DNA from: Letharia columbiana
Lineage: Eukaryota > Ascomycota > Lecanoromycetes > Lecanorales > Parmeliaceae
NCBI RefSeq assembly: GCF_014066305.1
Contig: NW_023501047.1
Location: 1 to 64,000, forward strand
Reading direction: 5' to 3'
Length of the DNA: 64,000 nt
Under the pieces are notes generated by a model. That model saw only the letters and a list, made by a program, of their open reading frames with translations. It had not been told where the DNA came from and made no database searches. Both the position numbers and the translations under genes were made by a program. This document shows, one piece after another, positions 1 through 39,111 of the stretch (its first letter is position 1; each line of letters starts with the position of its first letter).

Positions 1-3000
1 GTGATTGGCGTGAAGGACTTCTTTCCGCTTATCAAGCACATTGGTCATCAATTGAATGGCTTGAACCTTGTCCCCCATATCATAGTAGCAAAGAGCAAGA
101 TTGGACAATTTATTCAACGTGTCTGGGTGATCAGACCCTAAGGCTTTCCGGTCCATCTCCGCAGCATCCTTCAAGAGCCTTGACCCGTCAACGAACCTTC
201 CTTGATCTTGATAGACCAAGCCGAGGAGATTGCTGATACCTGCCATCGTAACATTTTCCGCGCCATAAATTTCTTGCATCGTATCACGACACGATATGCA
301 GATTTTTTGCGCCTCATCCAGCTTCTTTTGACGGTAATAGGTTTCAGCCAATTCTGTTCGGGTCTCAAGAGTCCTCCGATGACTACGGCCGTAGGTTTTG
401 ATGGAGATTGGAATAGCTTGAACGCTCAGCTTCTCGGCTTCTTCGAGTTTGTTCTGTCGCAAATACGCATGAGATAGATTTCGCATTGCACCGAGAGTGT
501 GTATATACTCGAATCCATGATGTTTGGTACTCATTTCCAACAATCTAGTACTCAGCTTTTCAGCCTCTTCGTATTTGCCTTGGTTGGTTTGGGTAACCGC
601 TAGTCCATTTCCAGAGGCCAAGAGACTCGGATCTCCCGGATCTAATAACCTTTCTTGTACTTCGAACACGTGTTTCAGTAGATCCGCGGCCTTTTCATGC
701 TGCACTAAAGCACCATATGAGCAAGCAAGATTATGCATGGAGAGTAAAGTCCTTTGGTCCTCCGACCCATACTTCTCCCGTCTTTGCCTCAATAAGAACT
801 CCTGGAGATCTCTCGCCTCTTCCGTTTTGAGAAGTTACACTTTGAGCGTAAGCCAATATGCTCATGGTATTGAGGATATCGTCTGAGTCGTCATCAAAGT
901 ATTCTCGCAGAATTTGAAGCGCATCTGTCGATCTTTGTTCCGCAAGTCCGGCATGCCCTTTCCTTTCGACTAGATACAAGGCCGTGTGTACCAGTATAAT
1001 CGCGCGACTTAATCGAGATTCTTTGGAGCTAGCCATGTGAAGTATCACCTCGTCCGCGTGAGACATTAGGGCATCGCAGATCGGCCAATGTTGCTCTTGT
1101 TCTCGTGCTGGAAATTGATGCGCCACCCGCACAATCGCACTCTCTTTCCATAATTGATCACAACCTTCGCTACGAAGCCAATGCCGCATTGCTGTCTGCA
1201 CAAGTCTGTGCATCTCGAATACATTCTCTCTGGTTTCTGCACGGATCAGAGAGAAGCTAATGAGAGGATCAATTTTCTCGCAGAAAGAAACATCGTCATC
1301 ATCTCCTTGTAGCAGAAACTGTGGGATACCTTGCCGATTGATATACGACATAAGCGATAACAAATTAGCTGAGCCTGGGGTCTTTTCACGGATCTGGCGG
1401 AAGGATAACTCCCAGGATGTTATCACTGCATTTGGTACCGCTGGATCTCGCCTCAAGTCCCCTTTGCCCTTGTTAAGCAGAGTGGCTTGGTCCTCATTAC
1501 TGCGACGGAATTTATTGAGGTATATGGATATTGAAACCTGGACAACCGCTTTGATGTACGCACTAGCCTGGGAGATGGCGAGAGGCACCCTCTCCAACTC
1601 TGCCACAAGTTCAGAAGCTTCCTCTTCAGTGGCATCTGGCAATCTGTTCCGAAGCAGGCCGACAGCTTCATTTGTACTCATCGGTCGCACTTCTAGGGGC
1701 GTGCCGTTCTGTCCATTCAGGTCTAGCGCACAAGTGCGATCGCGAGTCGTGATGAGCACAGCCCCGTGTTGCACTCGCGGCAAGAAATCCAGCAAGCGGC
1801 GCTGCACAGACGTTGCGCCAGTCTCAGGATCTCGTTCTGGTAGGTGCAATAACACGGTAGCGTCGTCCGCATTGTCGAGGATCAACAGCCATCGACCATT
1901 GTCCGGATTTGCGAGCCATTTGGACACCAACTGGAGAATGTCGACCTTGCCGTCTCCAGTCCCAGGAATCTCTACTGTCGTGGCGATTTCTGTATATGAC
2001 TGTTCGAACCTCGCCTTGTCGCTCACATGGACCCAGAAAGTCGAGATCTCAGGCAACCGCTCTTTTTGTCGATATGAGTATTCGATGGCAATTTGCGATT
2101 TTCTGGCAGCAAAGGTCAGCCCAATTCTCTGAATAAAGGGTGAAAAGAGGTCCGCGTTCTACCCTATGCCACCGAGACCATACAGCGACGCCCAACTTTG
2201 TGATATTGGGTCCGCAAATTCGGACTCAAGCTGTGCCAGGATGTCCTCGCGACCAACAAAGCCAGGATCTTTCGAGAATGGAACGGTCGAAAAAGTCCTC
2301 ACACTCCCTCGAACAGGTTTTAATGACATAGCATCTATCATACAAAAGTCAGTCATGCTAGAGAATCATACGATCTTGGTTGGCTACGTACGAGTTGGAG
2401 AAAGGATCTGAGAAGCGCAAGCCATCACCTGCTTCCGATTGGATTGAAGATAAGCTTCAGTGGCCGTCTGAACCCTTCCCATTTCCTTCCACTCCTCTAG
2501 ACCCACAGTCTGCAGGCCCTGCTGTACATTGAAGCGAAAATAGATGTCCTGGTCCGGATATCGGTGTTCCATTTCCTCTTTGACCTCTTGAGCCACGTCC
2601 TCAGTGTCACTGGCCATCGCCTGGAGTGTCTCGAACAAAGGTTTGATCGTTCTCCCAACATCGTGAGAACCCATCACCCCCGTTCCGATACTGACAATGC
2701 AACCTACACTCCTCGAGGGCCAAATTTGCATCGCCTCCTCGTGAAGTGCCTGCGTGGGGTTGTTGTATCCTAGACCGCCATCCACAAATGTTCGAGGAGG
2801 ATTGCCGATTGAGACTGGTGGAAAATAACTGGGTGCTGCGGATGTAGCGAGGCAGGCCTCCCAGATTGTCATATCTTCAGATACAACCCTGGGGCTTTCG
2901 TAATTTCGGAATCGGAATGGACGGCGGGGTTCTTCGGAAACCACGCAAACAAAACTTGACGTTGTCAATAACATGAGCGAGAAAAACTGGAATGGAATGG

Positions 3001-3948
3001 GCTTACACTCTGCACCCCTGACTAGATTGAGATCGCATCGTCTCATTCCCCGTTGCATTATTTCCAAGATTCCCTCTCACAAGACCTTTGATAGCGGCTT
3101 CAAAAGGTGCTGGATCGAAGCGTTGGTCGCCTCTCAGGCCACTGTCTCTGTGGTCAATAGGGTTCAAAAGGGGCACAAATTTAGGCCAAGTGACGGATAA
3201 GGAAGCATAATAGCAACAAGGGGAAGGGTCCGGAAAGTACATACATTTTGGCCTTGCCCAAATATGCTTTTCGCTACCATTCGATTCAATGGGAAATATC
3301 TCTGGAGCCATACTCAGATATGCATTTATGCAAGTCTCTATGTCCATTCGGAGGACTCCTAACATGACAGCAATGAGTCTAAGGAAGTCAGCGAGGTTGC
3401 GTTGACTTTTCTGCTTTGGCCACAATAGGTGGACTGCTCAAAGAAAAGTAGGTAACAGCTGCATTAGCTCAGAACTCCACAGCTTCGTTTAAGTAAAGCA
3501 AGGGATATTGCTTCTTGGGCACAAAGAGCAAAATAGAGTCACCGAATTCGTGGAGTTCGCGTTTGAGGCTTAGGTTGTAGGAATTCCCGCAGCCCATGTG
3601 AGCGCGAACTTCCACATCGGCTACGCGCCAGGTAGACTTGAACTGGACAGAGAAAGTGGCCAATGAAAGATTGATTGGGGTAGAAAGGAGACCTACCCTC
3701 CAGTTGACGTGCCAGCAATCATGTCAAAGTAATCGCATGGTCGGGGAGAAGCAGTCTCTCCAGCAGGCACTGTCTCCCTATTGTCAAGCTTCTGGACGGT
3801 CACCAGCAGATCTCTGAGGATATAAAGGCTCGAGAGCCCCTTGATGCCACCGCCATCTGCATAGAGTCAGCTCTGGAGTACATCTTTTCCATCCCGAGAA
3901 CACCCTACCGAGCGAAAGCAACCGGAGTGGTGGCTCCGGATCCGCCAT
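1..3948 (-). CDS. Patatin-like phospholipase / NB-ARC / TPR protein (fungal NLR-like), 3' end outside window
   Basis: Fungal STAND receptor of the patatin-NB-ARC-TPR architecture. In this family the patatin domain is a lipid hydrolase, the NTPase is a switch and the TPRs sense; Neurospora PLP-1, which acts in allorecognition death, has the same plan. The start ATG at 3948 gives MADPEPPLRLLSL, spliced to DGGGIKG (oxyanion loop). Then come GTSTGG (nucleophile Ser) and DGGLGYNNP (catalytic Asp). NB-ARC follows with P-loop GLGGIGKS, Walker B WLLILDNADD, VLITTRD, RVPLA and MHRLVQ. Kinesin-light-chain-like TPRs run to the window edge. Introns that keep phase are 3857-3908, 3379-3696 (long), about 3148-3240, 2955-3006, 2335-2391 and 2103-2162. 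About 1,100 residues are visible. A frame change in the first TPRs near 825-828 (T4) suggests a one-base insertion, so the gene may be broken or the base may be an assembly error. The fine position of the 3148-3240 intron is uncertain, because two donor/acceptor pairs both keep phase. Confidence 0.88.
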
Positions 3949-16528: not shown

Positions 16529-19500
16529 TCAAATAACCTTTACGAAGCCCACCTCGACCAACTTCTCGACATCGAGGTTCATATTCGCCACCTTACTGCC
16601 CGTGTTACTCCTCAACCAGAGGAACGCCGCGAGGACGATCTTCCTGGACATGCCGCCCACGTTGCCCCACCCCCGCACCTCGCGGATACGCATCTGTTCT
16701 TTGCCCACGATGTGCACGACCTGGTCATCGTACGCCGCTTGCAAGGAAGCGAGGGCTTGGCGGACGTGGTGCTGTTTGCCGGTGGTTGCGGACTCGGCCG
16801 AGATGTTGAAGGGGGCGGTGGTGGGGGGGTCGGAAGAGGAGGTGGAGTCTTCGGAGGTGGAGTTGTTGGACTCGGGTGAGGGGGTGGGTGCGGTGGACGT
16901 GCCGCGGTCGTGGATGATGAATTTGCGGATGTTTTCGTAGATGAGGAGACCGAGGTCGCTGGTTATGACTTCGTCCGCGTAGCCGTGGCGGATGGTGACA
17001 CGGTAGAAGTCCTGCAGTGTACTCTTCGAGCTGGTGCGCGTGAAACATCTGGATACGCTGAAACGGTCTTCGGGCGCTACCGTCGGGGTTGAGAGAGGTC
17101 GGATGTGGAAGAAGACGACGACGGCAGGGGCAGCCTGGAATTTCTGCAAGAAGTGGATGAAGACGGACGGAGTACCATTCGGACTGCCTGTCTTATCGAA
17201 GAAGATGCCCACGCCTCGGAGCCGGCTGACCGGCGCACCACCCATACTGGACGAGAGGCGCAGTACAGGTGCATCACCATCTTTCTCCGCATGATTTGGC
17301 AACTCGGTCAGTAGCTTGCTAGGAGAGATCCTATCCTCGCCTTCGGCACGCCATTGGTTTTCTTTCCCATAGCGCCAGAGGACGAAGATACTCGACAATA
17401 GAATAGCGAGACAAAGCGTGAACCAAGCGCCGTTGGGGACCTTTGTGAGTGCAGATGAGAGATAGAGACCGTCGAGGGTGCCAAAAACCAGGAAACCGGC
17501 GACGACGATTAGGAAATGCAGGCGCCAGATGATCAAGGCTACGAGGGACACCATGCAGGTGGTGATGAAAGTGACAAGGATGACGCAGACGCCGTAGGCT
17601 TCTCCGAGCTTCGTGGTCTAGTGGTTCATCTCGGTCAGCTTCGTTGCGTGATGAGAAAGATGGGCAATTCGCAACAGTGGGACTGTGGGTTAGTGGGTCC
17701 ATTATGAGGCCATAGCGTTGGTGGCTGTTTGATCAGCCGTTCGCTGTTGGTACCCTTGTTGGTACCCCTGTTGGTACCCCGGCAAGGGGTTGGGGACAGG
17801 TGTCCAGTACGAGCTATATAGCCACCTGTTTTGCACCTGTCAACGGCTCTTCATTCGATTTCGTCTCTGTCAGAGCCATATCATTTTTCTTTTATCAGTC
17901 ATTGCGAAAGGATATTTCGACTATTTCAGCCATGCGGCCATGAAGCTATTCAGCCATTCCAGCTATTTGAGGCCACTGCAGTCACATGGATATTTCAGCC
18001 CTATTTCAGCCCTATTGCAGCCATGCGGCCATGAGGCTACTCAGCCATTTCCAGCCATATGGAATTGTCCAGCATACCAGCTATTTGAGGCTATTGCAGT
18101 CACATAGAGATCATGCAGCTATTCAGCCATTGGAGCCATGCCAGCCATTGGAGCCATGCCAGCCATTGAAGCCATGCCAGCCATTGGAGCCATTCCAGCC
18201 ATTTGCAGCCGTACGGCCATGCGACCATGCAACTACCATTTGGATACACACTTCAGCCATTCCACCTATAACTATTCACCTCAGCTATCGCAGCTACATT
18301 GATATTTCAGTCACTTCAGCTAGTTAGGCTATTGCAGCCATGTGGATGTTTTCAATCATTGCAGCTATTTCAGCTATTTCGGCTATCGCAGCCATGTCGC
18401 TATTTCAGCTATTTCAGCTATTTGAGCTATTGCAGCCATGTGGCTATTTCAGCTATTTGGGCTAGTGCAGCCATGTGGCTATTTCAGCTATTTGGGCTAT
18501 TGCAGCCATGTGGATGTTTTCAATCATTGCAGCTATTTCAGCTATTTCAACTATTTCGGCTATCGCAGCCATGTGGCTATTTCAGCTATGTCAGCTATTT
18601 GAGCTATTGCAGCCATGTGGCTATTTCAGCTATTTGAGTATTGCAGCCAGGTGGCTATTTCGGCTATTTCAGCTATGTCAGCTATTTGAGCTATTGCAGC
18701 CATGTGGCTATTTCAGCTATTGCAGCTATGTGGGCTATTGCAGCCATGTGGCTATTTCAGCTATGTCAGCTATTGCAGCTATGTGGGCTATTGCAGCCAT
18801 GTGGCTATTTCAGCTATGTCAGCTATTGCAGCTATGTGGGCTATTGCAGCCATGTGGATATTTCAGCTATTTCAGCTATTTGAGCTATTGCAGCCATGTG
18901 GCTATTTCAGCTATGTCAGCTATTGCAGCCATGTCAGCTATTTGAGCTATTGCAGCCATGTGGCTATTTCAGCTATTTCAGCTATTTGAGCTATTGCAGC
19001 CATGTGGCTATTTCAGCTATTTGGGCTATTGCAGCCATGTCAGCTATTTGAGCTATTGCAGCCATGTGGCTATTTCAGCTATTTCAGCTATTTGAGCTAT
19101 TGCAGCCATGTGGCTATTGCAGTCATGTCAGCTATTTGGGCTACTGCAGCCTTGGAGATGTCTCAGCTATTCCAGCTATTTGGGCTACCGCAGCCTTGGA
19201 GACGTCTCAGCTATTCCAGCTATTTGGGCTATCCCAGTCATTTCAGCTATTTGAACTACCGCAGTCATATCCAGCTACTTCAGCTATCGCAGCCACGGGG
19301 ATGTTTCAGTCATTCCAGCTATTCGGGCTATCGCAACCATGGAGATGTCCCAGCCATTTCAGCTGTCCGGGCTATCGCAACCACGGGGATGTTTCAGTCA
19401 TTCCAGCTATTCGGGCTATCGCAACCATGGAGATGTCCCAGCCATTTCAGCTGTCCGGGCTACCGCAACCATAGAGATGTCCCAGCCATTTCAGCTATTT

Positions 19501-22500
19501 GGAATATCGCAGACATGGGGATGTCCCAGTTATTTCAGCCATTTGGGCTATCGCAGCCATGGAGATATCTCAGCTTTTCCAGCCGTTTGGGCTATCGCAG
19601 CCATGGAGATGTCTCAGTTACTTCAGCTATTTGGGCTACCGCAGCCACAAGGGTATCTCAGCTATCGCAGCCATGGAGATGTCTCAGTTATTTCAGCTAA
19701 TCGGGCTACCGCAGCCATGGAGAGGTCTCAACGATTCCAGCTATTTGGGCTACCGCAGCCATGGAGATGTCTCAGTTATTTCAGCTGGTTAAGCTATCGC
19801 AGCCAGGGGGAATTTCAGCTAGTCCAGCTAATTGGGCTACCGCAGCCATGGAGATGTCTCAGTTACTTCAGCTAATTGGGCTACCGCAGCCATGGAGATG
19901 TCTCAGTTACTTCAGCTATTTGGGCTACCGCAACCTTGGAGATGTCCCAGCCAGTTCAGCTATTCGGGCTATCGCAACCACGGAGATGTCCCAGCTATCT
20001 CAGCTACTTGACCTATCGCAGACATGGGGATATCCCAGTTAATTCAGCTACTTGGGCTACCGCAGCCATGGAGATGTCTCAGTTACTTCAGCTATTTGGG
20101 CTATCGCAGCCTTGGAGAGGTCCCAGCCAATTCAGCTATTCGGGCTATCGCAAACATGGAGATGTCCCAGCAATTTCAGCTATTTGGACTATCGCAGACA
20201 TGGAGATGTCCCAGCTATTTCAGCTATTTGGGCTACCGCAGCCATGAAGATGTCTCAGCTATTCCAGCCGTTTGGGCTATCGCAGCCATGGAGATATCTC
20301 AGTCATTTCAGCTAATCGGGCTACCGCAGCCATGGAGAGGTCTCAACGATTCCAGCTATTTGGGCTACCGCAGCCATAAAGATGTCTCAGTTATTTCAGC
20401 TGTTTAGGCTACCGCAGCCATGGGGATATTTCAGCTATCCCAGCTATTTGGGCTACCGCAGCCATGAAGATATCTCAGCTATTCCAGCCGTTTTGGGCTA
20501 TCGCAGCCCTGGGGATATCTCGGCTATCGCAGCCATGGAGATTTTTCACCTATTCCAGCCATTTGGGCTATCGCAGCTATGGGACGTCCTTGTCACTCCG
20601 ACTATTTGGGCTACCGCAGCCATGAAGATGTTTCATCTATTCCAGCCATTTGGGCTGTTGCATCGGGCGATGACGCATACGCGTCAAAGCCTTACATCAG
20701 GTGTGAAGCCCCACCGAGGGCCATGATTCAGGCCAGTCCTTCCGCAGAGGGGCTGCAACTTGGTGTTGAGGGCCATTATTCAGGCCAGTCCTTCCGCAGA
20801 GGGGCTACAACTTGGTGTTAAGGGCCACTTTTCAGGCCAGTCCTTCCGCAGAGGGGCTACAGTCCTTCCGCAGAGGGGCTGCATCTTGGTATTGAGGGTC
20901 ATTATTGAGGGTTATTATTCAGGCCAGTCCTTCCGCAGAGGGGCTACAACTTGGTTGAGGGCCATTATTCAGGCCAGTCCTTCCGCAGAGGGGCTGCAAC
21001 TTGGTGTTGAGGGCCATTATTCAGGCCAGTCCTTCCGCAGAGGGGCTGCAACTTGGTGTTGAGGGCCATTATTCAGGCCAGTCCTTCCGCAGAGGGGCTG
21101 CATCTTGGTATTGAGGGTCATTATTGAGGGTTATTATTCAAGCCAGTCCTTCCGCAGAGGGGCTACAACTAGGTGTTAAGGGCCACTTTTCAGGCCAGTC
21201 CTTCCGCAGAGGGGCTCCAATATCAGCACGTGACGCCGGCGATTCCTACCGCCTTTTCGTCACTCACCCAGCCTACCTATCATTCACTACGGCACCAGCA
21301 CCTTCCAGCCCGTCCGCGCTAGTGCTACCGGTCCCTACTGCTTGCTGCAGTAGGTACCGTCAGGAGTCCTCCTCGAGACCTTCGCCCTCTTTGGACGACG
21401 TCTTGGGTTGTTTGGGAGTTTTTCTAGCGCTGGGGGGCCTTTTTTGGACTATTTGCATGTCCAGAAAGGTCTCAGCTGCCCCAGTGTTGGATATGCCCAA
21501 TCATCTATCTACATATCTACTTGTGCATGCGTTGTTCTGTATGGCCTCACTGTTTGCGAGCACTAATCGCAACAGTGGGACTGTGGGTTAGTGGGTCCAT
21601 TATGAGGCCATAGCGTTGGTGGCTGTTTGATCAGCCGTTCGCTGTTGGTACCCTTGTTGGTACCCCTGTTGGTACCCCGGCAAGGGGTTGGGGACAGGTG
21701 TCCAGTACGAGCTATATAGCCACCTGTTTTGCACCTGTCAACGGCTCTTCATTCGATTTCGTCTCTTTCAGAGCCATATCATTTTTCTCCCACCCACCCA
21801 CACCTGTATATAGCCTCATTTCACTCCAGGGCATGTCGCTCAGACATGGGAGTTTTTCTAGCGCTGGGGGGCCTTTTTTTGGACTATTTGCATGTCCAGA
21901 AAGGTCTCAGCTGCCCCAGTGTTGGATATGCCCAATCATCTATCTACATATCTACTTGTGCATGCGTTGTTCTGTATGGCCTCACTGTTTGCGAGCACTA
22001 ACGGCAAAGAGATAGGTGCGCACATTGCTATACGCCGCTGTGACGCAAATCGTGCCGACCATGAGAATCCAATTGACCCACGGAATGTAGATTTGACCGT
22101 GGAAGGTCCTCGATGTGTGTTTCATTTTGATTTGTGGGAAGTATGACAACTTGATTATTTGGGACAACAGCTAAATAAGAGTCAGTGTTCCGATGATTGA
22201 TTTGCGACTAATTCATGGGCTACTCTTACTTGAAAGGTCGCAGTGATCATAGTCTGACTTGCCACAATAGCCGCAAGAATGGCAATGACCAAACTAGGGT
22301 AGAACATGCCCGGAGGCACAGAGTTGAAGAAGGGGTTGGAGTAGGCACCTTTGTTCTGACTAATGTATGCAGCTTGACCGATGTACTGGGTATGAATCAG
22401 AGATTGGAAGACATAGATTTATGTCAAATAGGAGAGAGCTTACGGCCAGCAGAAGACACGGAAACCCGAAGCACAACCACGAGAGCTGGATGGCCCTGGA

Positions 22501-31818: not shown

Positions 31819-32333
31819 TCAAGTTGGCACCAATCCCAACGTGTTCATCACACGTTTGACAGTATTCATGTCGCTGTCCAAATACACCGCTCCTAGAACA
31901 GCCTCAACAGTGGCAGACATTGTGACCGGAGACACGTGGCCCAGCGTCGAAGGGTTTTGATTGACGAATGCCACCAGACCAGTCGCACGGCCAATTCTAT
32001 CCAAGTTGAGGTTACCCCCAACTGCCTGTCGGATCTGGTCAAATCGAACTGAAATAAAGTCAGCTCGTGACCTCAGGCGATCCTTCGTCATGTATTTTTG
32101 TCACCCCGAGCTTCCATCCCCTCGTGCCACGCTTCTGCGATCGCAAGGTCAAGCACCCGGTCGCCTAGCACCGCGAGACGTCTGTTCCCACCAACGAGTG
32201 TTCGATTGCCTATAGTCTGGACCGGCGACCCGGCGGCTTGAAGCGCTTCCCATATCGTCCAAGGATCGCTAAATTGATAGCCAATGATCTCCTCAACCCC
32301 GCGAATTTTGTCCATCATATTTGTGTCTTCCAT
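31819..32333 (-). CDS. Small RNase III-fold protein, catalytic site degraded (copy 1)
   Basis: Exons 32333-32105 and 32048-31819 (56-nt intron) encode 152 aa, essentially one RNase III domain with no dsRNA-binding domain. Pieces in order are VEEIIGYQFSDPWTIWEALQ, GGNRRLAVLGDRVLDLAIAE, GGNLNLDRIGRATGLVAFVN and MSATVEAVLGAVYLDSDM. Compared with the RNase III signature ERLEFLGDSVL, the two Glu positions are Arg and Ala. In the ADVVEAV segment the Asp is Ala, while the Glu is kept. Only part of the four-acid metal site survives, so it is probably not a nuclease. It could act as a dimerising or RNA-binding pseudoenzyme (inference). The reading frame is intact. A RIP-related repeat begins about 50 bp upstream of its start, and related copies lie at 35520-36385 and 38420-39111. 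Confidence 0.82.
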
Positions 32334-32380
32334 AGCGAAGGCCGATCGGGGCGCAATTGGAAAGAACGAAGTGACGTGTT

Positions 32381-32603
32381 AGACAGACTTATATAATCAA
32401 GTATAAGTAGGTCTAGAGTTATGTAGTAATGTGGACTTAGTAGTAGATAAATATATTTTCGTATATGGATCTTGTAGTAAGACGAATTCTTACGGAAGCA
32501 AGAAGGAAAACGGGGGCATCGCCCTCTTAAGCTTCTATGCCAAAAGCCTACGTATGCCAAGAGTCATGGCCACACTGCGGCTTCGCCCGGAAGCTGAGCA
32601 ACC
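32381..32603. repeat. Un-RIPped copy of a dispersed/terminal repeat
   Basis: Homologous in the same orientation to 34283-34497. Where the two differ, this copy almost always has G or C and the other has A or T (for example ATGTGGACTTAG here, ATATAAACTTAG there). It lies in the promoter of RNase III-like copy 1. Confidence 0.85.
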
Positions 32604-32647
32604 GGGTAGCAAAAAAGCCCGCACACCGCCATCCCGGAAATAAGAGG

Positions 32648-32693
32648 AACCAATGATGTACGTCCCAGAGAACCAATGATGTACGTCCCAGAG
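32648..32693. repeat. 23-bp perfect tandem repeat
   Basis: Two copies of AACCAATGATGTACGTCCCA-GAG, adjacent, no mismatch. Confidence 0.95.
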
Positions 32694-33524
32694 GTAGAAG
32701 GATAACTGCTATGTATGACTGATGTAGAGCCTAATATCTACCATGGCCAAGGCCCACTAGTGTTATTGGCTAGACAACCTCTATCAACTACTATTAAATA
32801 AATAATAAGAGTCTTACGATTATATTTATATCTAGTTAATACTCTAATTTATATTATATTCTTTATAATATTCTTTATATTTATAAATCGATCTAGACGT
32901 ATTAATACTCTTAATATTAATAATCTTAATAGTTCTAGATTCGTAATAATCTTTCTTTATAATAAATTAAAATCTCGTAGAATTTAAATTACTCGTATCT
33001 TAGATAATTAATTTAAATTTAATTACTAGCTAAGTATTAGAATTAATATAGATATAATATTAATATAAATAAGATAAATAGAATAATAAGACTATCGAAT
33101 TATATAGATAAAAAGAAGATATAATATAATAGAAGATATCTTCGCTAAGATATTAGATTATAGAATTAAGTAATATATTAAGAATACGCTTATAATATTA
33201 AGAGACTTACTTAGAATTTAAAAACGATAATAGAAACTATAGTAGAATTCTCTATTTAGATTTATTTCTCTTTATTAAATAAGAAGTTTATATAGATTTT
33301 AACTAAGTTATAGATATATTTCTCTTTATAATATTCTTATAAAATATAATCTTTATAATTAAATCTTCTTAAACTTTATCTTCTTAATAATTAATTATAA
33401 TTTATATACTTATTTTAGCGTAGCGAACTCGAATTTATAATTAATTATATATATAAATTTAAGATTTTTAAGCTTAGCTCTATCTTATTCTATTATACGA
33501 GTAAAGGCCTATGAATTAAATTCA

Positions 33525-33955
33525 TAATCATTTTTTTTTGATCGGGGCTGTCGAGTAAATTTTGGTGAGCGATCTTTGATAAGCGATATCTGAATTCCTT
33601 ATCTTTAAATATCTATAAGACTAAATTTAGTAATTCTTTTTTTATCTAAAAGCTCACATTATATTCTATAGTTTAAACCAAAAATTTTAAAATTTTAATA
33701 GAAAACAAAAAAGTTATTCTAAAATCAAATAATGTACACCTGTTTTTTGATTAGGGCTGTCGAGCGGATTTTGGTGAGCGGACTTTGATGAGCGATATTT
33801 GAATTCCTTGCGCTTTAATAATTATAAGACCAAATTTCAAAATTCTTAAAAATTCGGAAAGCGCAGACTGCGCTCCAAAATTTGAAGTTTAAAATCTTAA
33901 AAAGTTAATAGAAAACAAAAAGTTTTTCTATATGTTAATAATGTACACCTATTTT
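33525..33955. repeat. Two diverged tandem copies of about 215 bp
   Basis: Each copy begins TTTTTTGAT(C/T)(G/A)GGGCTGTCGAG and ends AAAAAGTT...AATAATGTACACCT. Copies differ mainly by transitions. Confidence 0.75.
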
Positions 33956-34132
33956 TTTGATAGTTGCGGACGCTAATTTGTTTACCCGCGGTGTCTAACC
34001 AAAAAGCGTAGACCTGACGAATTGATGATTGGCTGCACATACAAATTCAAGGTTTTCTAGTTCAGCCCTATCTTATTCTTTTATATATACTGATATATTA
34101 ATTATTATTATTTAAAAAGTAAAAGTATTACT

Positions 34133-34277
34133 CGTAGTATTTAGAAGTAAGTAATTTAACTTAATAGCGCCGAGAGAGTTAATTAATTAAACTACGATTT
34201 TCGCGATAAATTAAGTAGTTTAATTAATTAACTCTTTCGACGCTATTAAGCGAGATTACTTACTTCTAAATACTACG
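34133..34277. repeat. Large imperfect hairpin, 63-bp arms, 19-bp loop
   Basis: Left arm 34133-34195 begins CGTAGTATTTAGAAGTAAGT. Right arm 34215-34277 ends ACTTACTTCTAAATACTACG. About 57 of 63 positions pair, and most mismatches are transitions. The loop centre is GATTTTCGCGATAAATTAA. Confidence 0.92.
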
Positions 34278-34282
34278 ATTAG

Positions 34283-34497
34283 AATTATTAGATAAATTAT
34301 ATAGATAAATTTAAATATATTTAAAGTTATATAGTAATATAAACTTAGTAATAGATAAATATATATTTATATATAGATTTTATTATAAGATTAATTCTTA
34401 TAGAAGTAAGAAGAAAAACGACTCCCTTAAGCTTCTGTATTAAGTCTACGTATATTAAGAGTCTTAGCCACACTACGGCTTTACTCGGTAGCCGAGT
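34283..34497. repeat. RIP-mutated copy of the repeat at 32381-32603
   Basis: Aligns with few gaps. Differences are overwhelmingly C-to-T and G-to-A relative to the other copy (CTACGTATGCCAAGAGTCAT versus CTACGTATATTAAGAGTCTT). Confidence 0.85.
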
Positions 34498-34500
34498 CCC

Positions 34501-35519
34501 CTTTAGGAACCTCAGCTAACATGACGTCTGATATGTGCTGACGGATGACGATGGAGGTACGAAAGGAGAAAGAGAGGGCGGTGAAGGCTTAATAACTACT
34601 GGCTCCGCGAATGCAGTGTCTACGTCGTCATAGCAACGGCATCCAATCGGAATTGTCGGCTTTGCCTTCGAAGATCCACTCTTGCTAATCGAAATTGTCG
34701 CCTGGGACAATCATGGTTCGCACATCGATCAACCAATCACACACACAGCGACCAGGCCATTCAAATGATACGCTGACCGGAAGTTTGCACTCGAAATTGC
34801 CACCACGGCCAGCATGTTATAACCGGAACATGCTTATTTGCAGACTGACGGCTCTACTAAAGGATCTACCCTCGTACTGACCAATTTATATCAATCTGCA
34901 ACGCTAACCACGTCTGATGACGAGAAGTAGAAGAAGAAGTCCAAATTAGGTCACGACTAATTTCCAATCCGTATCAAGATAAGCCAGTCTCAAAATCTTC
35001 TTGATAGTCAGCCCCAACACAAGTGTCCGGTCCCCAACACGCCCCTAGCTCTCTCACATTCGCAATACTCACCATATTATCGTCCGACGCGATCTCTTTC
35101 GTCAACCGATATCACTGAATCAGTTTATATATTTGTTCTAAGGATTGTCTTGAAGCTATCTGTTGATCTCCAGCAATCGTAGAGATGAAATGGATAAGAG
35201 CTGGACTTCGTTTGCTCCGACCGCCGTTGAACCCCACCCCCTTCAGCAAGATTCAAGTTACTGTCGGCGGGAGAAAAGGACAAATCTAGAGCCTCGGAAA
35301 GAAATAGTGTGTCTTCGAATGCGTCATCGTCTGCGCTCGACTGCTTCGTTAGCATTTTCTTGTGATAGAGTGCCGGCCATGGGGATATGCTCGCTTAGTA
35401 GCTGATAAGGGCGCAATCGAGGTCCTAAAGAGCTGGGAATGAAGAGAAATGGAATACTCCCCGATTGGCTAGGATAAAATGTACATAGCTGCACTGACAC
35501 AAGACTTACACATTGAAGA
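34501..35519. other. Intergenic, no gene recognised
   Basis: Normal base composition returns after the AT-rich block. Short frames on both strands show no domain. Confidence 0.4.
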
Positions 35520-36385
35520 TCAGCGAGACAGCTCATTGCGCATTGAATAGAACATTTCCTCTAAACGCAGATGAACAGAGCCATTCACACCGCGCCACAT
35601 ATCTCCACGATATCTGCTACATAAATCGATTATCACCCAACAGATCAAGAAAGACCCTGAAGAGAACACGAAGTACCACATAAACGAACGCACCATTCGA
35701 CAGCACCCCGCCTCCCTACCTCTCGTACGCTTTCCCTCCCCCTCATCCTCACCATACGGTTCATCAAACACGTCCAAACATCCCATCGCCGCATCTGCTC
35801 CAGGCTCACTCTTGCTCCTTTTCCCAAGGACCCCATCGCACTTTCCCAGCGACGATTTAACCCCGCTCATACCCGTATCCAGATAAAGCGCGCCAAGGAT
35901 AGTCCTAACAAACATAACCATCGTAACCTCCTCCGCCTCAGCGACCTTGGCCGAACACGTGTAATCGGAAACGAGGACTTGTACCAAGCCGACCCTCTCA
36001 CCAATATAGCGCGGGAGATTATCACCTGCCCCTCGTACGCACGATAGTCTCCAAATCTGTATCCCAAGTCATTATAAGTAATTGAAAACTCCAGATCCAG
36101 CATTCGAGCGAGAAACCGACAAACGTACATACCTTCAGCACTCTCTGCGCCGTATTTGACATTCTCCGCCAACGCAAGACCGATCGCGAATCCCCCAATA
36201 AGAGTCAGACGTTTATTACCATCAGGGGAAGTTCCGTTGTCGGTCATGCCCGACACGGATGTCCTGATGCCTTGCAGAGCCTCCCACGGAAGAGAGGTTT
36301 TCTAGAACCGGTGAAAGATGATATCCTCGATACGTTTGCGAGTGAGGGCGATGCGGGGGGTTACTTTTTCGAGTCGTGCCGCCAT
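35520..36385 (-). pseudogene. RNase III-fold protein, copy 2, disrupted
   Basis: From ATG 36385 the frame reads MAARLEKVTPRIALTRKRIE-DIIFHRF, then TAG (36302-36304), then KTSLPWEALQGI. It aligns without gaps to copy 1 (EEIIGYQFSDPWTIWEALQA), with the stop where copy 1 has Ser. It continues GNKRLTLIGGFAIGLALAEN (RNase III signature with all acidic residues lost). After a 76-nt intron (36132-36057) comes DLETIVRTRG. Then an extra base near 36025-36032 shifts the frame before GDNLPRYIGERVGLVQVLVS and VMFVRTILGALYLDTGM. The C-terminal extension to 35520 contains a hydrophobic stretch (FMWYFVFSSGSFLICWVIID), not seen in the other copies. Two independent lesions argue for a pseudogene, although initiation at a downstream ATG (MTDNGTSPDGNK) cannot be excluded. 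Confidence 0.72.
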
Positions 36386-36469
36386 AGTTGTGGAAGTTAT
36401 GGTGAAGAATAATCAATACTGGGTGGAGTCTGAGCGTGCCATGCAGCTTGGAAAAGAAAGAAAGCCTGT

Positions 36470-36736
36470 CTAGAGGAAACCTATCCCGAGGATCGTTGGA
36501 ACGCCATATGACTTGAAGAAAATGGACCTATCCAACATCATCACCACGGATTGCGGGGCTTGCAGAGCCTCCCATAACTGAAAGCGAGTGCGAGAACAAC
36601 GACCGATATCGACTGCAGTTAGTCTAAACATATTCACGGGCCTCGACGATACGCGTTCTCCCCAATCCACATCCCGTCCGTCTCCTCTTCCGTCCTCACC
36701 TATCACCCCATGGTTGTTCTCATAGTTACTCATCAA
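36470..36736 (-). pseudogene. Possible N-terminal relic of a further RNase III-like copy
   Basis: A minus-strand frame contains RFQLWEALQAPQSVVMMLDR. Its LWEALQAP matches the WEALQAA/RQALQTP helix of the neighbouring RNase III-like copies, but the rest cannot be aligned by eye. It lies directly upstream of copy 2. Confidence 0.3.
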
Positions 36737-38419
36737 CTAATCCCACCTCCCAAACAATTGCTCTATTGCGAAGAAACAATGAAAAAAATCTGAGCACAAA
36801 ACCCCTCAGTCCTTCTCAACCCACTACGAGCGCGACAGTAAGGAATAAGACCACCTTGAAGAAATCGAGTCAAGGGCGAAAACAAAGCATAACCATCTAC
36901 CACCCAACCGCACCCGTGCCCAACCTCCCACCAAAGAATCTCAAACGAGCAGGTAGCCCGCAAAACATGACTTCACACCGCCAGTCAACCAGCCCCTCAT
37001 CCCTTATCCTCATGACCCTGCAGAAGGCCGACGAATCACCGCTGGGCAAATTACAATTCTACCCCAAACCTTGATCCTTAAATTCGACCCATATTTTTAC
37101 CCCATGGGGTGATGGATGCATTCTTGGGGTTGAAATGTAATTTACATGTGCAGGTCGGGGCGTCCGGCGGGGACTGACCTCCTGCGCTTCTTGTAATCTT
37201 ATCATGATAATTTGGGTTCATTTTTAGGGTTTAAGGCTCCCGTTTTTGGGTAAGCCGGATCCTGTTTTATTATTTACATTGTATTATTTTCTACCCAGAT
37301 TTGAATGTATTTTGATTTTGGTTTCAATCACCGCTTCATCCCTCTGCAACCAATTCGGCAATCCATTTCACTCCGTTCCAACCAGGAGCTCGACTCCCCA
37401 TTCCCTTCCGTACGCAAAATGATGCTTCCTCTCGGGGTCCAACACCATCGTCTGGAGCGGACTCTGGAGCTTGGATAGAAAGAGTACGTTGTAGTGAAGT
37501 GTTAATTCTCTCACTCAAGAAGAGACGGCTTTGAACGCGTTCCTTTTCTCTTCTTCCTCGCTCGAAAGGACTGGGACTATAAAGTTCAGACGAAGAAGAA
37601 GAAGGAAAAAAACGGTTCGCTATACCACATCCTCGCATCCTACCCTACTTACCTTCATACCTCTCGATCACATGCGATTGAATCAGGGCCGTAGGTAGAT
37701 CAGTGATGCAATTCGACGGTCAAATATGAAGCCAGCCGTCAATCAGAAGAGAGGAAAAAACGAACCAAAGCGTTAAATACGTCTACAAACGTATTTCCCC
37801 TACTCGTGATCCCTCAGTCCTCGCCGATACTACATCTCACATCTCATATCTACGAAAAACCAGTCAAACAAGCCGTAGAGAAAAAAACAAGAGAAAAAAA
37901 ATCTGTCAAAGCACAAGCTTCCCAGCCAAAACCATTTCTTATTCTCACGCATCACACACACACACACACACAGAGGCCACATCAAGATAAGTCCAAACAA
38001 TTGGAATATTCCAACGCCGGCCAAAGCAACCCCAGAAGCCCGTGTCCACAGGCCTATTCTCGCACCCCGACACCAAGAACCCTTCCATGGCCCACGACAT
38101 AGGTCTGGAGCGAAGATACTAGGTCGCTATGTACAAACAGGCAAGCGTGAGTGGATGAGTGAGTTGGTCAGAAAACAATAGCTGTGCAAGAGATAGAGAT
38201 CGAAAGATCGAAAGAAGCTAGCTAGTGCAGAACAGGTAGGTGTATATGTGTGTATGCATGCAGCTCGCGTTGAACACGTGTCTTCTTCCGTGGACACATG
38301 TCTGAACAACACGCGACTATATCACTCAACCCGTAACCCCGTCCCACCATGTCGAGACGTCCAGTTTCGATGCAGCGCACCTACCACTTCCCCCCTCCCC
38401 CCTTTTTACCACATACAAC
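36737..38419. other. Intergenic with a (CA)n microsatellite
   Basis: (CA)10 at about 37953-37972. A plus-strand frame from 36766 is Pro/Ser/Lys-rich without a domain. No supported gene. Confidence 0.4.
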
Positions 38420-39111
38420 CTACGCCGCCCCAGCCCCGACGCCCTCCCCCGCAACCGCCCTCTCCGTCTCCCCATCAAACATGCGGAACCGCGCCAACAC
38501 GCCCCTCAAGCCCACGACGCCGCCGTCGCAGAAGACGGCCCCGAGGACCGCCCGGACCGTCCGGGCGAGATGGGTCGGGGCGTCGGGCCCGTCGAAGACG
38601 GGGCCGAGCTCCATCATGTGGCCGAGCTGGACGACGGAGGCGTCGGTGGCGACGGCTTTGGATTCGGTGGCGATTTCTAATAACACGGATCAAAATCAGT
38701 TTTAGAGATCAAAAATCATCGATCGAGTCAGCAACGAATAGTCAGCGCTGCTCCAAACTCCCCTTCCCTCTCCTTCCACCCCCATCCCCATCCCCACCAA
38801 TTCAAGAAAACCTCACACCCACCCCTCCACTCAGCCCCACGCGCGAAGAAAAAATCCGCGACCGTAAGTTCCAACGCCGCGTTCCCCACAACGGCGAGGC
38901 GTTTATTCCCCTCCTCGACGGAGCGCGCGTCCGTCCTTTCTACGAAATTGAGGGCGTGGTCGTGGAGGGGGGAGCCGGGGGTCTGGAGCGCCTGGCGGAG
39001 GTAGATGGGACGGTGGAAGAAGTGGCCGAGGGTGGGTTCGATGATGGCGAGGACTTTCTCCATCTTGGGGTCCGGGGCGCCGGGCGCGGGCGGTCGTGCT
39101 GGTTCCGTCAT
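38420..39111 (-). CDS. Small RNase III-fold protein, catalytic residues lost (copy 3)
   Basis: Exons 39111-38823 and 38676-38420 splice in phase across a 146-nt intron to about 181 aa. The N-terminus is Pro/Ala-rich (MTEPARPPAPGAPDPKMEKV), then LAIIEPTLGHFFHRPIYLRQ-ALQTPGS. The signature region is EEGNKRLAVVGNAALELTVA, and the second acidic segment is HLARTVRAVLGAVFCDGG. Against ERLEFLGD and ADVVEAV, the four acidic positions are Lys/Ala/Asn and Arg/Arg, so no metal site remains. The GN(K/R)RL core is shared with copies 1 and 2. The gene is GC-rich with no stop or frameshift, in contrast to copy 2. A start at the upstream in-frame ATG 39252 would add 47 His-rich residues; I prefer 39111. Confidence 0.72.

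What the first reader, a model, noticed from the sequence alone, without database searches (positions are those of the whole stretch)
31819..39111. Local cluster of small RNase III-fold proteins that have lost the catalytic acids
Three related one-domain proteins (copies 1, 2, 3) and perhaps a fourth relic lie on the same strand within 7.3 kb. All share a GN(K/R)RLxxxG core where active RNase III has ERLEFLGD. Copy 1 keeps two of four acidic residues, copies 2 and 3 none. None has a dsRNA-binding, helicase or PAZ domain, so they are not Dicers or Rnt1. Copies 1 and 3 are open despite strong divergence, which argues for retained function without catalysis, for example binding dsRNA, dimerising with an active RNase III, or interfering with RNA silencing. 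Duplication amid RIP-affected repeats suggests a fast-evolving family. Function is inference.
Basis: partly seen in the sequence, partly recalled or inferred. Interest (0 to 1): 0.82.

Follow-up and report, generated by a model that had tools for sequence, protein, structure and literature searches.

The report
Fungal RNase III-like proteins, probably non-cutting
A lichen fungus carries a small cluster of proteins shaped like the RNA-cutting enzyme RNase III but missing part or all of its cutting site; one of them belongs to a family found across filamentous fungi that shares this loss, so it probably does a job other than ordinary RNA cutting.

Summary
The window is the start of a 1.24-Mb contig of Letharia columbiana. 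Copy 1 (31819-32333) and copy 3 (38420-39111, annotated HO173_003857) are intact two-exon genes. Copy 2 (about 35847-36385) is broken by an in-frame stop. The fourth relic is only a 16-nt motif. Structure prediction gives RNase III folds for a 96%-identical copy 1 orthologue (pLDDT 93.9) and for copy 3 (82.8). Copies 1 and 3 share a phase-1 intron at the same place with two paralogues elsewhere. The main correction is scale: copy 1 belongs to a single-domain family found in five classes of Pezizomycotina (359 proteins at E up to 0.001, 120 listed). Of 136 sequences in hand, 109 are near full length: none of these has E at the E38 or E41 position of E. coli RNase III, E41 is alanine in 107, D45 and E117 are both kept in 100, and the signature-helix glycine linked to dimerisation never varies. 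So the half-lost active site is old and maintained, while copies 2 and 3 lost every acid. Best reading: RNase III-fold proteins that act by dimerisation and/or binding structured RNA rather than ordinary cutting. Function is inferred. New variant of a known kind.

The parts
32105..32333 (-). Copy 1, exon 1 (residues 1-76 plus one base); signature GNRRLAVLGD at 32160-32189
32049..32104 (-). Copy 1 intron, 56 bp, GTGACA...TTTCAG, phase 1
   Evidence: the 151-aa L. lupina protein P0001 aligns through the junction
31819..32048 (-). Copy 1, exon 2 with stop; TVEAVLGAVYLD with the E117 equivalent kept and the D114 equivalent replaced by A
36134..36385 (-). Copy 2, first part, with one in-frame TAG; core GNKRLTLIGG
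35847..36026 (-). Copy 2, second part (GDNLPRYIGERVGL...TILGALYLDTG), in another frame from the first; no acid at the D114/E117 positions
   Evidence: own reading against the family
36558..36574 (-). Possible fourth relic: WEALQA motif, 16 nt identical to copy 2
   Evidence: nothing else of the domain recognised
38823..39111 (-). Copy 3 (HO173_003857), exon 1; core GNKRLAVVGN
38677..38822 (-). Copy 3 intron, 146 bp, GTGGGT...TATTAG, phase 1, same place as in copy 1
38420..38676 (-). Copy 3, exon 2 with stop; R at both the D114 and E117 positions
32800..34450 (.). AT-rich block (22% GC) with RIP-type dinucleotide bias between copies 1 and 2

Best explanation
Copy 1 is a member of a family of single-domain RNase III-fold proteins of Pezizomycotina whose active site is altered throughout the family (E38 to K/R, E41 to A, D114 mostly lost; D45 and E117 kept). 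It most likely does not cut double-stranded RNA in the usual two-metal way. It keeps the RNase III fold and the signature-helix glycine linked to dimerisation, and probably works as a dimer that binds structured RNA or pairs with another RNase III-fold protein, adjusting RNA processing or silencing. Copies 2 and 3 are diverged relatives that lost all these acids; copy 2 is broken and copy 3 is an intact, fast-evolving gene. Shown: sequence relationship, predicted fold, residue loss in every near-full-length member examined, conserved intron, conserved glycine. Inferred: lack of cutting, dimerisation, RNA binding, link to silencing.
Against: No biochemical or expression data. D45 and E117, which I recall as the most critical acids in E. 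coli RNase III, are kept in most members, so some activity is not excluded. The position of the phenylalanine that I recall as a dimer-interface residue of bacterial RNase III is F in 0 of 109 rows (V 37, G 20, L 19, I 13, M 13, A 4, S 2, gap 1), so the interface has changed and pairing with a normal RNase III may not be favoured. Between two genotypes copy 1 shows five amino-acid changes and one silent change (dN 0.018, dS 0.009), which does not show purifying selection, though numbers are tiny. The relatives were found with queries that lack the acids, and 120 of 359 were listed, so catalytic cousins may have been missed. The outgroup of the tree is two long-branched rows. A database search with copy 3 did not return the rest of the family, and copy 3 stays below the Pfam cut-offs.
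Confidence: 0.55

Rival explanations
1. Altered catalysis: the family still cleaves RNA, with a remodelled site (D45, E117, the new K at E38) and a changed substrate, such as single-stranded RNA.
For: D45 and E117 are both kept in 100 of 109 rows and 22 of 109 keep D114. A precedent exists: Mucor R3B2 has a non-canonical signature, with a lysine at one catalytic position in three of four M. circinelloides paralogues, yet its RNase III-like domain is needed for function (PMC4395119, passages). The title of a later paper, seen only in a reference list ([quoted passage not shown]
Against: E41 is lost in every row with a letter there, and D114 in 87 of 109. R3B2 has two dsRNA-binding domains; copies 1 and 3 have none. 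Copies 2 and 3 keep no acid.
Confidence: 0.17
2. Copies 2 and 3 are decaying duplicates without function; only copy 1's family matters. (This can be true together with the best explanation for copy 1.)
For: Copy 2 carries a stop and a frame break. Copy 3 has a very long branch (2.96), and apart from itself only one partial relative was found by the search with it.
Against: Copy 3 is open over 181 codons with a conserved intron place, is annotated, and models as an RNase III fold. The partial relative P0138 is 96% identical over about half of it (exon 1).
Confidence: 0.35
3. The family is a mitochondrial ribosomal protein of the mL44/mL57 type, which have non-catalytic RNase III folds (protein names recalled).
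Against: A profile of 61 members matches 43 distinct PDB sequences at E up to 0.1, none named as mitoribosomal. The genome has several diverged paralogues, which would be odd for a core ribosomal protein. No targeting-signal test was run.
Confidence: 0.05
4. A host protein family related to the RNase III-like domains of fungal RNA viruses, used in antiviral defence or captured by viruses as a counter-defence.
For: [quoted passage not shown]
Against: No relative was confirmed in a scan of viral contigs (33 stretches matched a pattern, none confirmed; whether that collection holds many RNA viruses I do not know). The seven viral structural matches at E up to 0.001 are RNase III or uncharacterised proteins of viruses that I know as large DNA viruses, at 10-20% identity.
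Confidence: 0.12

Closest known systems
KREPB9/KREPB10 and other non-catalytic editosome RNase III proteins (Trypanosoma brucei)
   Same: RNase III fold with degenerate metal-binding acids and an invariant signature-helix glycine (PMC5770545, passages)
   Different: Editosome proteins of trypanosomes; here a lone domain in filamentous fungi, mostly keeping D45 and E117, with no known complex
RTL4/NFD2 (Arabidopsis)
   Same: RNase III-domain protein; top structural match of both models, tied with bacterial RNase III; co-purified with viral dsRNA (PMC8566308, PMC7650723, passages)
   Different: 15% and 22% identity to the two models; its catalytic residues were not compared here. The authors of PMC8566308 suggest it lies near viral factories without direct contact with viral dsRNA, so it is weak support for dsRNA binding
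R3B2 (Mucor)
   Same: Fungal RNase III-like protein with a non-canonical signature that takes part in RNA silencing (PMC4395119, passages)
   Different: Has two dsRNA-binding domains and is described there as specific to Mucorales
Mitoribosomal mL44/mL57 (names recalled)
   Same: Non-catalytic RNase III fold; structural matches
   Different: Ribosomal; none named among the 43 profile matches
Bacterial RNase III and Rnt1-type enzymes
   Same: Fold and part of the signature
   Different: Here the E38 and E41 equivalents are lost and the dsRNA-binding domain is absent

Membership tests
Pfam PF14622 / PF00636 (RNase III-like domain) | Score above the curated cut-off: copy 1 | tested here: met
   38.5 bits (cut-off 35) and 34 bits (cut-off 27); its orthologue P0001 likewise
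Pfam PF14622 / PF00636 (RNase III-like domain) | Score above the curated cut-off: copy 3 | tested here: not met
   28.7 bits (E 1.7e-6) and 18.8 bits, both below cut-off, although the database lists PF14622 for it; its fold matches
Catalytic class 1 RNase III | Acids E38/E41/D45 and D114/E117 | tested here: not met
   0 of 109 members have E at E38 or E41; copy 1 keeps D45 and E117 only; copies 2 and 3 keep none
Catalytic class 1 RNase III | dsRNA-binding domain | tested here: not met
   No such match in copy 1 or copy 3 at E up to 10
Dicer | Two RNase III domains with helicase and PAZ | tested here: not met
   152 and 181 aa, one domain
Non-catalytic RNase III (KREPB-type) | RNase III fold with degenerate acids and kept signature glycine | tested here: met
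Non-catalytic RNase III (KREPB-type) | Association with a partner through the domain | not testable with these tools
   Needs protein interaction data
Mitoribosomal mL44/mL57 | Sequence relationship to mitoribosomal chains | tested here: inconclusive
   None named among 43 profile matches, but structural matches exist
R3B2 | RNase III-like domain plus two dsRNA-binding domains | tested here: not met
   definition from PMC4395119 passages

The most novel reading that the evidence does not exclude
A conserved family of RNase III pseudoenzymes in filamentous ascomycetes acts as built-in regulators or decoys of RNA silencing, binding dsRNA or pairing with RNase III partners, with fast-evolving offshoots such as copies 2 and 3 shaped by conflict with mobile elements or RNA viruses that carry similar domains.
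Probability: 0.15. Interest if true: 0.75.

Novelty: new variant of a known kind. Interest (0 to 1): 0.5.

Why it matters
Several proteins of this family are labelled 'ribonuclease III' or 'Ribonuclease 3' in databases, although no near-full-length member examined has the complete cutting site. If the family regulates RNA silencing or RNA processing without ordinary cutting, it adds a component to RNA biology in lichen, saprobic and plant-associated fungi, and the family-wide E41-to-A change gives a simple mark for it. No paper describing the family was seen in the listings (20 of 164 papers listed; 15 of 234; 0 found; 30 of 51; 10 of 24; 0 found; 8 of 66; 8 of 20); only open-licence papers are held, and unlisted papers were not seen.

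Tried and rejected
Recent local loss of catalysis: rejected for copy 1, because the loss is family-wide. The second copy at C100:6897: taken first as a paralogue, then as another genotype of the same locus, because contig C100 runs collinear (inverted) with window 1-33234 at mostly 86-97% identity (one 180-bp piece 83%), and the L. columbiana sample of McKenzie et al. is described as triploid-like (PMC10512270, passages). That the held genome is that sample is my inference. RIP damage of the copies: not seen. Viral origin: no confirmed relative in viral contigs. dN/dS: only one allele pair was available, too few changes to decide; none for copy 3, which has one place in the genome. Whether copies 1-3 form one clade: unresolved. 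A further weak match at C3:1448069 (E 0.117) reads like a very diverged member but was not tested. The C7 paralogue seems to have a frame break in its second exon, which may be a sequencing error. PADLOC, PHROGs and Rfam were not searched.
Full report
What the window is. The window is bases 1-64000 of contig C12 (1,237,400 bp) of a 52.2-Mb genome in 161 contigs. Copy 3 is identical to HO173_003857 of Letharia columbiana on a contig of the same length, so the genome is that of this lichen fungus (Lecanoromycetes, Parmeliaceae). A published sample of the species is described as triploid-like (PMC10512270, passages). That fits contig C100, which runs collinear with window 1-33234 at mostly 86-97% identity and carries an intact allele of copy 1.

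The genes. Copy 1 has exons 32333-32105 and 32048-31819 and encodes 152 aa. It passes the curated cut-offs of PF14622 and PF00636 and has no other domain at E up to 10. Copy 3 has exons 39111-38823 and 38676-38420 and encodes 181 aa; my splice model equals the annotated protein. It matches PF14622 at E 1.7e-6 but stays below the cut-off (28.7 against 35 bits). Copy 2 has an in-frame TAG in its first part, and its second half lies in another frame. The proposed fourth relic is a 16-nt match to copy 2 that spells WEALQA. Copy 1, copy 3 and the paralogues on C91 and C7 share a phase-1 intron directly after an arginine codon at the same place, which supports common descent beyond the weak sequence similarity.

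The family. A search with copy 1 gave 49 proteins. A search with an alignment of 30 sequences gave 359 at E up to 0.001 among 7,996 scored candidates, of which 120 were listed. Named members come from Lecanoromycetes (Letharia, and others), Sordariomycetes (Colletotrichum), Leotiomycetes (Hyphodiscus), Dothideomycetes (Coniosporium) and Eurotiomycetes (Arachnomyces). I held 136 sequences and used the 109 with most core columns filled, dropping 27. None has E at the E38 or E41 position; nor does any of the 27 dropped rows that has a letter there. E41 is A in 107, S in 1, gap in 1, and ranks 6th of 147 scored columns in conservation. D45 is D in 102, E117 is E in 106, both in 100; D114 is D in 22. 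The signature glycine is G in all 107 rows with a letter. The T-H of helix 2 in C. jejuni RNase III is replaced by Q-A (Q in 107, A in 100 of 109). So the changed site is not decay but a kept feature. The search words come from members lacking the acids, so a catalytic cousin could have been missed.

Tree. With 112 rows, the family separates from two active RNase III rows, both on long branches (97/92). Copy 1 lies in a 12-row clade that includes P0001 and the Alectoria protein P0002; the C91 paralogue groups with a Lepraria protein and the C7 paralogue with a Pseudevernia protein. The genome therefore holds several old lineages of the family. Copy 3 has a very long branch and no firm place. 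In a second tree of 38 rows copies 2 and 3 pair weakly, and both carry R at the E117 position; a clade of all three copies with P0001 is not rejected (p-AU 0.217).

Selection. Between the two genotypes, copy 1 differs at 7 coding bases: five amino-acid changes and one silent change, dN 0.018 and dS 0.009. This is too little to judge, and it does not show purifying selection. Constraint is inferred from the conserved protein pattern across species.

Mechanism. The genome has an RNase III with acids at all five positions by my reading (D at the E38 one), two loci with Dicer_dimer matches next to RNase III matches (the second RNase III match at the C21 one holds stops, which may lie in introns) and Piwi-domain matches, so partners and a silencing pathway probably exist. 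By analogy with the non-catalytic RNase III domains KREPB9 and KREPB10, which need the corresponding glycine for normal association with editosomes (PMC5770545, passages), the best reading is a non-cutting dimerising or RNA-binding protein. Against easy pairing with a normal RNase III, the residue that I recall as the interface phenylalanine is F in 0 of 109 rows. The main rival is altered catalysis, for which Mucor R3B2 is a precedent (PMC4395119, passages). An antiviral or counter-defence link is possible because RNase III-like domains occur in fungal RNA viruses (PMC12282112, passages), but it is untested.

Verdict. Known kind: RNase III pseudoenzymes. New variant: a family across filamentous ascomycetes with a characteristic half-lost site, not described in the paper listings seen.

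Noticed in passing
G000:C100:1-70388 against window 1-33234: Contig C100 holds an inverted, collinear second genotype of the left half of the window; the match stops in the AT-rich block next to copy 1.
   Followed up: yes
window 731-3076, minus strand: A DUF7779 match in a 475-aa open frame, beside a patatin-like phospholipase match: possibly one fungal NLR-type gene (my inference).
   Followed up: no
window 18990-19875, plus strand: Long repetitive open frames made of short repeated units (QLFGLSQPW-like), probably a minisatellite rather than a gene.
   Followed up: no
window 34120-34290: A 76-nt inverted repeat, 87% complementary, 19 nt between the arms, in the AT-rich block.
   Followed up: no
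window 32389-32512 and 34297-34420: A 124-nt direct repeat, 77% identical, one copy just upstream of copy 1 and one at the far edge of the AT-rich block.
   Followed up: no
G000:C3:1448069-1448251: A very weak match (E 0.117) that reads like another highly diverged member without the acids.
   Followed up: no
G000:C7:373777-374275: A paralogue that groups with a Pseudevernia protein and seems to carry a frame break, possibly a sequencing error.
   Followed up: partly
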